NCBI GenBank assembly: GCA_009602725.1
Contig: WELB01000069.1
Span: 87,999 to 129,699 of the forward strand
Length of the DNA: 41,701 nt
DNA from: Spirogloea muscicola
Lineage: Eukaryota; Streptophyta; Zygnematophyceae; Spirogloeales; Spirogloeaceae
Direction: 5' to 3'
The notes under the pieces were generated by a model that saw only the letters and a list, made by a program, of their open reading frames with translations, ran no database searches and was not told where the DNA came from. Shown piece after piece: positions 2,520-28,334 of the stretch. How positions within the stretch are numbered: position 1 is the first letter of the stretch; each line of letters opens with the position of its first letter. The translations under genes and the position numbers were made by a program.

Positions 2520-4072
2520 TCTGAAGAAGGGCTCGCCCAATGAGGATAGGGGCTGGAAAAAGCCAGCCCAAAAAAGAATGAATAAAGGACGAGAAGGGGC
2601 CAGGGGAAGTACGAAGAACAACAAGCACAAAAAAGAAACGAAGCAGCTACGAAGCACTCAGTAACCCCTGCTAAGCAGCCTCAGGTCCGAGAGACTGGGT
2701 CCCTGGAAGCGGGTCCCCTGGCCAGAGCCAGAGGCAGCAGCGAGGGGTCTGCCTGCGCGCAGGTGCAGCGCGCGGGCCATAGACCTCTGCAGCGAGACGG
2801 CCAAGCGCATGCGAAACACCTGCGCTAGCGACCCTGCTGCATGGGATCTGCGTATTTGAGCTCCTTGGCCCGAGCGGCGCAGGCTTACCGCATACCCAGC
2901 CTTGGAGGCACACTGGGCGGGGTGTGAGCGGTCGTAGGGGTCAGTGGTCACCACGTCAAGGATAAGACGTGGCCCGCCGGCTGGTGGGGGGTGGCCACAA
3001 GGTCGACGCGACGGGCGTGCAGACCGCTCGCCGGTTGCTGGAGCGGCATGACTGCGGAATTCTCGGCGGCCACCGAGAAGCCGGCCTCCACGAGGATGCC
3101 CATGTATCGCATCCCGGAGGAGGTCGTGGGCCGCTGTCCGCTCGCCGCCGTGGGAACAGCGCAGAACATGGGCGGCCAGCTCCCCAGGCTCGGCCCCTCG
3201 CTCGCTACATTCGCATTGCAGCACACCCTGGAGACATGGCGGCGGCAGGCCCAGGAGCCGGTGGACGGCACTGCGGAATACCTCGTCCGGGAGGGTGGGG
3301 GCGTTGTTGAGGGGGAGTGCCTGGAGCCGTGCCGCTGCTCCCGGGGAAGAGGCCGAGTGGAGTCGTGCGCGCCCGCGCAGGTCGGCCGCCGGGAGCTGCT
3401 GCAAGGTGGTGGTAAAGGCTGCCTTGTCCATCGCGGCCGCGAAGCGCGCCTGTACGCGCAGGTCGGCGGTGTGCGCGAGGTGCTCAAAGGAGACCCCTGG
3501 CCCGCCAGATTCGGGTGCGCTGCGAGCAGCTCCTGGTAGGCTGAGCGTAGCGACGCCTGGAAGGGCAGCACACCCGTGCTGACGTCCACCACTGCCTGCT
3601 CCAGCGCCGTGGACCAGGAAGCGCTGGGACACGGAGGCGGCTGTCTGTGCCTAGCTGCCGAGGTACGCCGCCCTGCAGGAACAGACGAGCAGGCGCAGGC
3701 CGAGACCGCCGTAGCTGAAGGGCAGCGCCGCCTGATGAAGAGCGGCAGGCGACTGCGGGAAGCCCTGGTGGCGGACCAGGGCCGCCAGGCTCGCCACCAT
3801 GTTGGCGTCGAAACCCGCGTACGTTGTCAGCGCCCCTGGGCACGGCGGGGTGGCCCGCGCCAGGTACTGGGGCCTCTGTGCAATGGCCTTGGTCAGCATG
3901 GCCAAAGTCAGCTGCATGTCCTGCAGCTCGGGGAGCCGGGCCGCAGGCTGGAGGTGCTCCTCGAGGCGGGCGCGCAGCTGCCCCTTCATGAAGGACGGCG
4001 CGCCGAGGGGGACCCCGAGGAGGATGAAGCCGTCTGCAGGAGTCAGGCATCCGGGGGGCAGCGCCAGGGTGG
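2520..4072 (-). mobile_element. LINE copy 2 (left arm of head-to-head pair)
   Basis: Minus-strand, 5'-truncated copy of a non-LTR retrotransposon. Reading 4072 to 2520 it covers the region after the RT active site, a CCHC zinc knuckle, a restriction-like endonuclease core, the carboxyl terminus and the 3' tail with SL1 (2550-2569) and SL2 (2529-2538). Coding is broken among several frames (long open pieces at 2658-3632, 2948-3592, 3484-4407 and 3651-3989), so it is a pseudogene. Bases 4072 down to about 2660 are an inverted duplicate of 4218 to about 5740. Confidence 0.75.
2661..4072 (-). pseudogene. RT/endonuclease polyprotein remnant of LINE copy 2
   Basis: The decayed coding part of copy 2. 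It lacks the fingers and palm of the reverse transcriptase, including the F-A-D-D motif, and starts downstream of the point where copy 3 has that motif. The downstream CCHC finger (C-x-C-x12-H-x3-C spacing in copy 3) and endonuclease region are present but spread over more than one frame. The family's role would be target-primed insertion of its own RNA. This copy cannot encode a working protein. Confidence 0.65.
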
Positions 4073-4076
4073 CCTA

Positions 4077-5743
4077 CGTTCGCTGACGACACCACCATGG
4101 TCGGCCCTCCGGAAGACATGGCGGCGGTCTTCGTCTCCTTTGAGCAGCAGCTGGCCACCCTCGGCCTGTCCACCTGGACGACGAAGTGCGCGGCTTGGTC
4201 CCCCTGCGGCCTCCCATCCACCCTGGTGCTGCCCCCTGGATGCCTGACTCCTGCAGACAGCTTCACCCTCTTGAGGGTCCCCCTAGGCGCGCTGTCCTTC
4301 GTAGAGGGGCAGCTGCGCGCCCACCTCGAGGAGCACCTCCAGCCCGCGGCCAGACTCCCCGAGCTGCAAGACATGCAGCTGGCTCTGGCCATGCTGACCA
4401 AGGCCATTGTGCAGAAGACCCCAGTACCTGGCGCGAGCCACCCCGCCGTCCCCAGGGGCGCTGGCGGCGTACGCGGGTTTTGATGCAGGCATGGTTGCGA
4501 GCCTGGCGGCCCTGGTCCGCCATCAGGGCTTCCGCCAGTCTCCTGCCGCTCTTCATCAGGCAGCGCTGCCCCTCAGCTACAGCGGTCTCGGCCTTCGCCC
4601 GCTCGTCCGTTTCTGCAGGGCGCCATACCTGGGCAGCTGGGCGCAGACAGCCGCCTCCATGTCCCAGCGCTTCCCTGTCCACGGCCGGCATGTGCTGGAG
4701 CAGGCGGTGGTGGAGGCAAACGCGGGTGTGCTGCCCTTCCAGGCGTCACTACGCACAGCCCACCAGAAGCTGCTCGCGGTGCACCCGGATCTGGCAGGAC
4801 AGGCGGTCTTGTTTGAGCACCTCGCGCACACCGCCGACCTGCGCGTCCAAGCGCGCTTTGCGGCCGCGATGGACAGGGCAGCCTTTGCCACCGCCTTGCA
4901 GGAGCTCCCGGAGGCCGACCTGCGCGGGCGTGCACGACTTCACTCGGTTTCTTCCCCAGGGGCAGCGGAGTGGCTCCAGGCCCTCCCCCTCAACGACGCC
5001 CTCACCTCCCGGACGAGGTCTTTCGCAGCGCCGTCCACCGGCTCCTCGGCCTGCCACCGCCATCCCTCGAGGGTGTGCTTCAGTGCGAATGCGGCAAGCG
5101 AGGGGCCGAGCTTGGGGACCTGGCCGCCCATGTTCTACGCTGCTCCGACAGTGGGGAGCAGACAGCGGCACACGACCTCCTTCGGGATGCGATGCACGGC
5201 ATGCTCGATGGAGGCCGGCTTCTCGGTGGCTGCCGAGCACTCCACAGTCATGCCTCTACAGCAACGAGCGGACGGTCTCCACGCCCGTCGCGTCGACCTT
5301 GTGGCCACCCCACCAGCCGGCGGGACACGTCTCCTCCTTGACGTAGTGACCACCGATTCCTACGACCGCACACACCCCGCACATTGTGCCTCCAAGGCGG
5401 GGTATGCGGTAGCCTGCGCCGCTCGGGCCAAGGAATCAAAGTACGCCGACCACACGCGGGACGATGAGTTCTTCCCGCTCGCGATCGACACACACGGGGC
5501 GTTGGGCGCTCGTGGCTCGAGCTGCTCAACCAGCTCTCACGACACGCCATCGCCCGCCGCTTCCATGGGGAGCCGGTAGACTTTCATGCAGCCATGTCGC
5601 TAACGCAGGTGTACCGCATGCGCTTGGCCGTCTCGCGGCAGAGGTCCATGACCCGCGCGCTGCACCTGCGTGCCGAACGAGCCCTCGCTGCTGCCTCTGG
5701 CCCTGGCCAGGGGACCCGCTTCCAGGAGCCACGTTTCTCCGAC
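4077..5743 (+). pseudogene. frameshifted RT + CCHC + restriction-like endonuclease
   Basis: Remnant of a LINE polyprotein: RT motif F-A-D-D-T-T-M-V, then thumb-like sequence, a CCHC knuckle, and a domain with the D-V-V...K-x-x-K-Y arrangement expected of the restriction-like endonuclease found downstream of RT in R2/CRE/Dualen-type LINEs. Comparison with the other copies shows an extra base near 4417, a missing base near 5005, a frame change near 5270 and a missing base near 5515. The N-terminal RT half is absent. Endonuclease class is inferred from motif order, so its assignment to a named clade is open. Confidence 0.65.
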
Positions 5744-7002: not shown

Positions 7003-10000
7003 ATGCAAGCCTTCCCGGCGCGCGGTCGACGGCTGGCCAGCGGCCAGCAGCTCGTGGCCTACGAGCTCAAGTGCGACCGCGAGGCCCTCTCCGAGCGGTG
7101 AGCTCACGGAGATAACGAAGTTTTCCGGCTCTCCGCCGTCGCCGCAGCCATGGCCAGCGTCGCTTTGCAGCGAGCGCGGCTTCGGAAGAGCCAGAGCTCG
7201 TCCGAAGCTGGCCGTCCACCACCAACCGGCGCCCGCTTAGAGAGGGTCCAGCGAGCCGCTGTCCACCAACAGGAGTCTGGCGTCTTGCTGATATTCCAGT
7301 CACTAGTAATCCTACGGAAGTCAGAATGGGCAAAGGGAAAGGGAGTTCTATTGGCTGGATTGCTCGATATCAGAAGGACATATCTCATTCGAGACGAATG
7401 GAGTCAGTCTGTCCGATGCTCAAGCAAAAAGTGGTACGGATCTCATTCGAGATTTAGTCAGTTTTTCCAATGCTCAAGTGTAAAGCTTTGCTTGAGCATT
7501 GAACAAACTGACTCCACTCTTCTCAGATAAGATCTGTCCTTCTGATACTCGAGCAGTCCAGCCAGTAGAAATTCTTCTCCCTCTGCCCAATCTTACTTCT
7601 GTAGGCTTACGAGCAAGTGGCATATCAGCAAAAACTCGTACCCATATCTTAGCTCAGAAGGAGCTGCCGCTGCCAGAAGGCAAGCCAGGGGGGGGGCGTT
7701 GCTCAGCGCCGTTCAGAGCCACAGCAACTACGGCACTCTGGACTTGATTAAAGCCAGGCGCTTTGGCAAGCACCCACCTGCAGCAGAGCATGCCCAAGCT
7801 CGATCTGCCAGCTTGCCTTGTTGGGCCATTGCTTACATTGGCGCCTGATCGTTGCGCCTTGCCTTGTCAGGCTGGGCCCCGCCGAGTACTACCCACCGTC
7901 CGCTGAGGACTGCGAGGGGGTCCTGTCGAAGGAGGATGTGCAGAGCGGCTACAAGGAGGTCATTCCGGGGATCGAGGTGATTGTCAAACTTCATGTTGCT
8001 GGCCGTCTGCAAGCCAGTGGAGCAAGCCAGTGCCGATGCTGTTACGCTCGTGGTTGCAAGCTTCAGTGGCCACGCAGCCCCATTGTGCTGGTGGCATCTT
8101 GGTTGTCATTTACGTCTGTCATTGAGATTTTCATGATGAGGAGCTTTGGTGCGTGACACATTCTCATTTGCCTTCCTCATTTGGTTGCCTTTGCTGGCAA
8201 CTGCTGGCAATTGCAGGAGAGCATGGAGGTGGCGCACACGCTGACCGGCGGCTCCTTTGCAGACATCTGGGCGGCACACAGCATTGCCCAATACCGTGAG
8301 GTCTGGCTGGCAGGCCTTGCAGCTATGACAGCCACACAGAGCTGCCAATCGACACACTTCACTCCATCTTGTACTTTTGAATGTAGTTGTTGCAGTCACA
8401 GTGGCATGCAGAGGTATTAAACCTTGTAAGCATCTCAGATTGAGAATGCTACCACCCTGCAGACCATCCGGCGGCAGCTCCGGGCTCTGCACGGCGTGGT
8501 ACTGCGGAAGCGGAAGGCAAGTTTCTTTCGTGAAGAGCTCAGCAGAAGTTGATTCGAATATAACAGTTGTGCACCTTACAGTCAAGTAACCCCTGTTGTA
8601 CCTCTGCCGGTATACATTGCTTCTTGGTGATTTTGGTTTGGTCAGTGTTTGACATACGGCTGCATGATTGGAGGAGGCAGGTCGGGCAGGTATATGGTGT
8701 GCCGCTGGTTGGGCCCCTGCTCCTTAAGTCTGGCCAGTTTCCCGAGCTGAAAACATGTGGCGAGGACTTCCGCCGGAAGTGGATGGAGGTCAGCACTTTG
8801 TCTGACCTCCCTGTCATACTTGCTCTGATGTCAGTTGTATGCCTTCTGCAGCTAGCATGGACAGAGGTGTGTGCTGCCCAGTCTTCGCCAAATCAGGCCG
8901 ACCCTTTTAGGTGACTTGGACGACCTGATAGAGAAGGTTTGCCGATCTTGCAAGGATATGTCTCTGTGGTGATATCTCAAAGACAATGTGTAACCCTTCA
9001 GGACCTGGCTGGGCGGAAGCGACTCCGGCAGTTGGCTGAGCACGTCCCCCATGGCTTCCGCAAGAGGTTGCTCTTCGAGGCGCTCATTCGCCACAATGTA
9101 CCGCTTCTGCGGGCGACCTGGCACATCCGCATCCTCTACTTAAATCAGGCACGTATGGTGTACATGAGAAGCAGCAAGCACAAACTGGACCACCTCGTCT
9201 GCTGGCTGGCAGCCGTGTCGAGCTTGTTTCTCATTGGAGAACAGAGCAACTACTCTTGAAGTAACGTGATAACAGCATCACTTAGGTAGGAAACAGTCTT
9301 GATAAGTTTTATATAAATATAGCACAGCTTCTGGGTGTGGGAAATTCAAAAGCTCTGAGCATTCCAATGCTCAGGTACGCCCGACGGCTCCTGGAGGAAA
9401 TGGTGTGATCACTGACAAGGCGCAGGCACGGCGAGTGGATGTCTGGACCAAGGATATACTAGAATATGCTCAATCTCTGCTCGAAGAGATTGCTGTCACA
9501 GAGTCTCCGGCCACGTTCAAGGAGCCTGCCAACTCGTCTGCGAAGCTGGGAGAGGCTTCCTCGGAGGCGTTGCCGGTCGATGTACAGGTGCAAGGAGCTA
9601 TGCTTGCACGAGACACATTCATGTCAAAGGCCTGCTGTTTCGCATCATTCTTGCCAAAGAGACGAATGGTTTGTCCTGCCTTGTATGGCTCCTACTGGAG
9701 CTTGGGTAGGTCCTACCTTGGTTTAGCTCCTGATTTGAGCCTTGTGCTGCAGGCCAAGTGGCGGTACCTCATGCGGCTGGCACAGTGGCATTGGTCGGAA
9801 GGCCTGGTCCCATGCTCAGCAATCCTGGACTGGATCCTCAAGCAGATGCAGGTACGAGTCAGACCCAGGTCACTACGTCTTTTCTTTGAAAGATTGGCAG
9901 AAGTGAAGACAATCTGGTCTGCATTCTCATGGTCAGGTATTATTTGGCAATCTCCATTGCAAATGATTACTTCGTATAATCATGTGATGTAAGGTTATTA

Positions 10001-27967: not shown

Positions 27968-28334
<367 letters not shown>

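What the first reader, a model, noticed from the sequence alone, without database searches (positions are those of the whole stretch)
7284..7632. Long near-perfect hairpin inside MED12 intron 1
Two arms of about 148 bp, highly similar as reverse complements, surround a 54-bp loop that itself repeats part of the left arm. The hairpin lies wholly within the first intron of a Mediator subunit gene (intron 7098-7870), so every MED12 pre-mRNA would carry it. It is longer than a typical animal pre-miRNA and fits a plant-type small-RNA precursor, a young MIR-like inverted duplication or a foldback transposon. It belongs to none of the other repeat families here.
Basis: seen in the sequence. Interest (0 to 1): 0.72.

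Follow-up and report, generated by a model that had tools for sequence, protein, structure and literature searches.

The report
Hairpin from a duplicated mitochondrial fragment
The long hairpin in this gene's first intron is an old piece of mitochondrial ribosomal-protein DNA present twice in opposite directions; it folds well but shows no sign of being kept for a purpose.

Summary
The hairpin is real: a 347-nt inverted repeat (7285-7631) in MED12 intron 1 that folds far better than shuffled sequence. It does not look like a transposon, and nothing here supports a microRNA gene. Each arm, translated, hits Pfam Ribosomal_L16 and has plant mitochondrial uL16m as best PDB match. So it is best read as an inverted duplication of a mitochondrial rpl16 fragment in the nucleus (a numt). 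At least ten other loci hold single, non-palindromic rps3-rpl16 pieces. The same hairpin sits at the same site in the MED12 copies on contigs C94 and C36, so it predates their split; the genome is probably Spirogloea muscicola (inferred). It is no better conserved than the rest of the intron (invariant columns 241 of 360; 5' flank 151 of 189; 3' flank 157 of 221). Arms of one copy pair no better with each other than with swapped arms (321 of 426 cells against 319-328). Best reading: a decaying palindromic numt, a passenger removed by splicing. Whether it is diced into small RNAs is untested.

The parts
7098..7870 (+). MED12 intron 1 (773 nt) carrying the hairpin
   Evidence: GTGAGC...TTGTCAG ends, kept in the C94 (778 nt) and C36 (776 nt) copies; the reading frame joins exon 1 to exon 2 (read from the sequence)
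7285..7428 (+). left arm: decayed rpl16 fragment of mitochondrial type, sense on +
   Evidence: translation hits PF00252 at 31.9 bits, cut-off 27.9; best PDB match plant uL16m, E 8e-9; 84% DNA identity to numt C25
7440..7478 (+). third, partial direct copy of the end of the left arm, inside the loop
   Evidence: left arm matches L013:3939-3977, i.e. 7440-7478, at 79%; direct repeat 7402-7431 / 7456-7485, 80%, spacing 54; seen by eye in the C94 copy and, more diverged, in C36
7487..7631 (-). right arm: the same rpl16 fragment, inverted (sense on -)
   Evidence: translation hits PF00252 at 40.2 bits; best PDB match plant uL16m, E 5e-19; 82% DNA identity to numt C25
7632..7648 (-). right-arm extension: about 17 further nt of rpl16 with no partner on the left side
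   Evidence: numt C25 aligns to the right arm up to 7648 (query from 809) but to the left arm only from 7285 (query from 827)
7003..7097 (+). MED12 exon 1, coding part (start codon inferred)
   Evidence: 93-97% identical between the three copies
8996..9130 (+). exon sequence coding for the Med12 domain
   Evidence: PF09497, 63.1 bits; the same domain over the cut-off on C94 and C36

Best explanation
A fragment of the mitochondrial rpl16 gene (about KIWVRVFADIP... to ...SLSNAQ) was inserted into intron 1 of a MED12 ancestor as, or soon turned into, an inverted duplication with a short spacer and a partial direct repeat. Shown: rpl16 identity of both arms, nuclear intronic position, presence at the same site in three paralogous MED12 loci, broken reading frames, no excess conservation, no detectable arm co-evolution. 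Inferred: the mitochondrial (rather than nuclear-gene) donor, entry by end joining at a double-strand break with two pieces in opposite orientation (or fold-back synthesis), and that the hairpin is now a passenger, transcribed with MED12 and removed by splicing. Any dicing into siRNAs would be incidental, with other numts as the evident matching sequences.
For: Both arms hit Pfam Ribosomal_L16 above the curated cut-off. Plant mitochondrial uL16m is the best PDB match of each: 70 bits against 44 for the best other L16 and 39 for chloroplast L16 (right arm); 37 against 28 and 22 (left arm). Arms do not match the plastid rpl16 (best 23 nt, E 0.39, in the 5,253 bases of C460 compared). Ten other loci carry fragments of the rps3-rpl16 stretch; three of them (C31, C67, C214) share one end point and look like copies of one insertion, the other ends are scattered. 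An inverted self-match was found in 0 of these 10. C25 and C31 are frameshifted and carry rps3-like sequence upstream (the rps3 label is recalled). The hairpin lies at the same place on C94 and C36, inside about 4.4 kb of 87-88% identical DNA. K2P between copies: hairpin 0.21-0.28; 5' intron flank 0.11-0.15; 3' flank 0.14-0.24; exons 1 and 2 0.03-0.08. Invariant columns: hairpin 241 of 360; 5' flank 151 of 189 (Fisher p 0.001); 3' flank 157 of 221 (p 0.31). True arm pairing 321 of 426 cells, five arm swaps 319-328. GC 44% against 57% for the window.
Against: No mitochondrial contig was found in the held assembly: the 11 PF00252 matches are plastid, cytosolic L10-type (label recalled), numts and this hairpin, and COX1 gives 15 partial matches, 10 of them with internal stops. 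So the donor was not compared directly. The arms of the C94 and C36 hairpins were not among the PF00252 matches listed. The hairpin is clearly less conserved than the 5' flank only; against the 3' flank there is no significant difference, and for C69-C94 the 3' flank is the more diverged (0.236 against 0.214). All three copies still fold very stably (z -17.6, -19.7, -13.7). Three copies give the swap test little power. The duplication mechanism and the spacer's origin are not explained.
Confidence: 0.88

Rival explanations
1. Intronic microRNA or siRNA gene born by inverted duplication: the hairpin is cut by a Dicer-like enzyme and the products silence complementary RNAs.
For: Very stable long hairpin in an intron. 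Intron-derived miRNAs that need no splicing are established in Chlamydomonas (PMC4817775, passages). Inverted duplication, also of pseudogenes, is a described route to plant MIRNA genes (PMC3237417, abstract). Spirogloea has DCL2/3/4-type and AGO1/5/10 genes (PMC7994812, passages).
Against: No better conserved than the flanking intron. The longest run of invariant columns is 14 nt, reached by 669 of 2000 column shuffles. No detectable arm co-evolution. No Rfam match at gathering threshold in the window. DCL1 was not identified in the two published Zygnematophyceae genomes (PMC7994812). The matches listed for the hairpin in its own genome are the other two hairpins and two numts (lower bound, and short 21-nt targets would not show).
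Confidence: 0.08
2. Foldback transposon or MITE with long terminal inverted repeats.
For: Long inverted arms; several related places in the genome.
Against: The three complete copies found are at one paralogous site. The other matches are single rpl16 fragments. The two ends are unequal by about 17 nt. No direct repeat of 4 nt or more at the ends is shared by the three copies; chance-like 4-nt repeats appear in C69 and C36, none in C94 (shorter duplications were not tested). The arms are ribosomal-protein coding sequence.
Confidence: 0.02
3. Inverted duplication of a nuclear gene for mitochondrial L16 (functional transfer to the nucleus) rather than of mitochondrial DNA itself.
For: No mitochondrial contig is at hand, so the donor compartment is inferred.
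Against: No intact uL16m reading frame among the 11 PF00252 matches (a gene cut up by introns could be missed). C25 and C31 carry rps3-like sequence upstream of rpl16, as in an organellar gene cluster (gene order recalled).
Confidence: 0.05

Closest known systems
Nuclear mitochondrial DNA (numts), rearranged type with mixed orientation
   Same: Organellar gene fragment in a nuclear intron, non-coding, decaying. Numts in introns and numts of non-uniform orientation are described in plants (PMC7037861, passages).
   Different: Here two copies of the same short fragment face each other and form one 347-nt hairpin, plus a partial third copy.
Plant MIRNA genes arising by inverted duplication
   Same: Hairpin from an inverted duplicate of a gene or pseudogene (PMC3237417, abstract).
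   Different: Arms are of organellar type; no sign of conservation or co-evolution of the arms; no small-RNA evidence.
Intron-derived miRNAs of Chlamydomonas
   Same: Stem-loop inside an intron of a coding gene (PMC4817775, passages).
   Different: There small RNAs and DCL3 dependence were shown; here no small-RNA data were available.

Membership tests
numt (nuclear mitochondrial DNA) | sequence derives from a mitochondrial gene | tested here: met
   both arms PF00252 above cut-off; best PDB match plant mitochondrial uL16m for each arm; in the protein comparison only
numt (nuclear mitochondrial DNA) | lies in a nuclear chromosome | tested here: met
   inside an intron of MED12 on contig C69, 672,250 bases; same site on C94 and C36
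numt (nuclear mitochondrial DNA) | matches the species' own mitochondrial genome | not testable with these tools
   no mitochondrial contig found in the held assembly
numt (nuclear mitochondrial DNA) | no longer codes for the protein | tested here: met
   only short pieces readable, frames shift within the arms
MIRNA gene | stable stem-loop transcript | tested here: inconclusive
   the fold is met, z -17.6, -19.7 and -13.7 in the three copies; transcription was not tested
MIRNA gene | precise 20-24 nt products from one arm | not testable with these tools
   no small-RNA reads available
MIRNA gene | conserved, co-evolving arms among paralogues (expected of a functional precursor, not strictly defining) | tested here: not met
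   three copies only
foldback transposon / MITE | target-site duplication | tested here: not met
   no direct repeat of 4 nt or more shared by the ends of the three copies; 2-3 nt duplications not tested
foldback transposon / MITE | complete copies dispersed at unrelated sites | tested here: not met
   of 5 loci listed, 3 are complete and lie in MED12 intron 1, 2 have one arm only; counts are lower bounds
foldback transposon / MITE | inverted repeats reach both ends equally | tested here: not met
   right end runs about 17 nt further into rpl16

The most novel reading that the evidence does not exclude
Organelle DNA as raw material for RNA-silencing hairpins: a palindromic numt in an intron supplies double-stranded RNA that is diced in an alga whose group is reported to lack DCL1, giving siRNAs that mark the genome's other numts for silencing, or an evolutionary seed of a MIRNA gene.
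Probability: 0.08. Interest if true: 0.7.

Novelty: new member of a known kind. Interest (0 to 1): 0.3.

Why it matters
It explains a striking hairpin without a new RNA gene, and shows that an inverted-duplicated numt can persist in an intron of a Mediator gene since before that gene was triplicated. Three paralogous copies give a natural test of whether a long intronic hairpin in a close relative of land plants is diced or just spliced away.

Tried and rejected
Rfam scan of the window at gathering threshold: no match. Plastid rpl16 as source: rejected (C460 looks plastid from its translations; arms match the part compared over 23 nt only). Transposon reading: rejected. Compensatory change: 6 pairwise double changes in the true arm pairs, 5-11 in the five swaps. 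CpG-decay signature: too few CpG sites (4-6 per copy) to judge. Centre of the hairpin as a natural palindrome of mitochondrial rpl16: three numts read AAGCTAGC (C25, C59) or AAGTTAGC (C159) there, not the hairpin's AAGCTT, so unsupported. Pfam on 10 proteins of the window (the joined exon 1-3 product and 9 open frames): no hits at E 0.001; the joined product alone at E 5: none; 10 further stretches at E 0.01: none, one of them (8997-9131) misframed by my own off-by-one, corrected. Med12 domain search of the genome: 3 loci over the cut-off, a fourth (C7) far below it.

Literature. Searches for numt-derived hairpins or numt palindromes listed 9 of 9, 0, 12 of 27, 12 of 97 and 1 of 1 papers; no title or abstract start seen there describes an intronic numt hairpin. 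Unlisted papers were not seen, and the library is open-access only. Six papers were opened: PMC7994812, PMC11096116, PMC11110229, PMC7037861 and PMC4817775 as passages, PMC3237417 as abstract and outline. PMC11110229, on plastid-derived RNA genes in moringa, gave nothing used here. Searches for small-RNA data of Spirogloea listed 3 papers, judged by listing only apart from PMC7994812.

The first form of this report said that the hairpin diverged more than the rest of the intron; one search shows this holds against the 5' flank and not significantly against the 3' flank, and the text was changed.

Full report
Observation. The inverted repeat is present at the stated place. The two arms (7285-7428 and 7487-7631) are 81-85% complementary. 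Taken whole, 7285-7631 matches its own reverse complement at 75% over 351 columns with 222 bits, where the best of 200 dinucleotide shuffles reaches 38 bits. As RNA it folds at -196.5 kcal/mol, z -17.6, 0 of 100 shuffles as stable. It lies within the 773-nt first intron (7098-7870) of a gene with a Med12 domain at 8996-9130. The loop contains a partial direct copy of the left arm, spacing 54.

Where it is. The window is C69:87999-129699 of a 153-Mb, 471-contig assembly. Contig C94 is 566,364 bases, equal to the published N50 of 566.4 kb of the 174-Mb Spirogloea muscicola CCAC 0214 assembly (PMC11096116, table passage). That species is reported to have a genome triplication (PMC7994812, passages). 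The Med12 domain is found over the cut-off at three loci, C69, C94 and C36.

Same site in three copies. The hairpin recurs over its whole length on C94 (79%) and C36 (75%). The intron flanks on either side match those two loci, and no others are listed. The regions align over about 4.4 kb at 87-88%, and the hairpin sits at the same point of the intron in all three. This makes it a single insertion older than the split of the three copies, and argues against an assembly artefact on one contig.

What it is made of. The left arm on + and the right arm on - translate to pieces of ribosomal protein L16; Pfam scores are 31.9 and 40.2 bits against a cut-off of 27.9. For both, plant mitochondrial uL16m is the best PDB match, well above other L16 including chloroplast L16. 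The plastid rpl16 of the assembly (C460, beside petD, rpoA, rps11, infA, rps8, rpl5 and rpl14; names recalled from the translations) does not match the arms beyond 23 nt. Single fragments of the same rps3-rpl16 stretch lie at ten other loci: C25, C31, C67, C214, C162, C240, C41, C207, C159 and C59. Of the 23 rows, these make ten, the MED12 hairpins six, and seven match only the unrelated flank of the query (1-548). C31, C67 and C214 share one end point and flanking sequence, so they count as one insertion. None of the ten has an inverted self-match in the stretch tested. A COX1 search gives 15 partial matches on 11 contigs, 10 of them with internal stops. So mitochondrial fragments are common in this assembly and no mitochondrial contig is evident. 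The hairpin is best read as an inverted duplication of an rpl16 numt. One gap: the PF00252 search listed the arms of C69 but not those of C94 and C36.

Is it under selection? Between copies the hairpin has K2P 0.214, 0.283 and 0.214 (C69-C94, C69-C36, C94-C36); the 5' flank 0.135, 0.145 and 0.114; the 3' flank 0.236, 0.206 and 0.144; exons 1 and 2 0.03-0.08. Invariant columns are 241 of 360 in the hairpin, 151 of 189 in the 5' flank and 157 of 221 in the 3' flank, leaving out 26 columns of the numt tail. The hairpin is thus less conserved than the 5' flank (Fisher p 0.001) and like the 3' flank (p 0.31). The longest invariant run in the hairpin is 14 nt, reached by 669 of 2000 column shuffles. 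If pairing were maintained, the arms of one copy should fit each other better than those of another copy. They do not: 321 of 426 cells pair in the true combination and 319, 320, 324, 324 and 328 in the five swaps; pairwise changes kept on both sides number 6 in the true combination and 5 to 11 in the swaps. With three copies this test has limited power. All three copies still fold strongly, which can be expected while arms remain 70-81% alike.

Mechanism. Most likely mitochondrial DNA was captured at a break, the route discussed for numts (non-homologous end joining; PMC7037861, passages), with the fragment present in both orientations or copied back on itself. The right arm's extra 17 nt and the partial direct repeat fit patchy joining better than transposition; this is inference. 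Today it should be transcribed with MED12 and removed by splicing, since the GT...AG ends are kept in all three copies; no expression data were available. Whether any of it is diced is open. The species has DCL2/3/4-type genes, and DCL1 was not identified in the two published Zygnematophyceae genomes (PMC7994812, passages). In Chlamydomonas, intronic stem-loops yield miRNAs without preventing splicing (PMC4817775, passages).

Verdict. A real but ordinary relic: a new member of the numt kind with an unusually neat palindromic form. Its main value is that a transposon or miRNA-gene label is replaced by an origin with direct sequence support, and that three paralogous copies allow a simple small-RNA test.

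Noticed in passing
window 2886-5411: A much larger inverted repeat, arms about 2886-4072 and 4218-5411 in seven pieces, 86-89% complementary, 145-nt spacer; inverted self-matches also on C94 and C36 upstream of MED12. The eight open frames tested around it give no Pfam hit. Unexplained.
   Followed up: partly
window 27968-28091 and 28248-28334: Two pure poly-A runs of 124 and 87 nt close together.
   Followed up: no
L032 (G000:C382:1-9000): Plastid-like ribosomal protein cluster (rpl23 to rpl16, names recalled; rpl16 match with a TGA) followed within about 0.3 kb by long GC-rich, nuclear-looking frames: plastid insertion or misassembly.
   Followed up: no
C31:802794, C67:371532, C214:163463 (L012, L051, L052): These rps3-rpl16 numts share flanking sequence with one another, so they too look like triplicated copies of one insertion.
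   Followed up: partly
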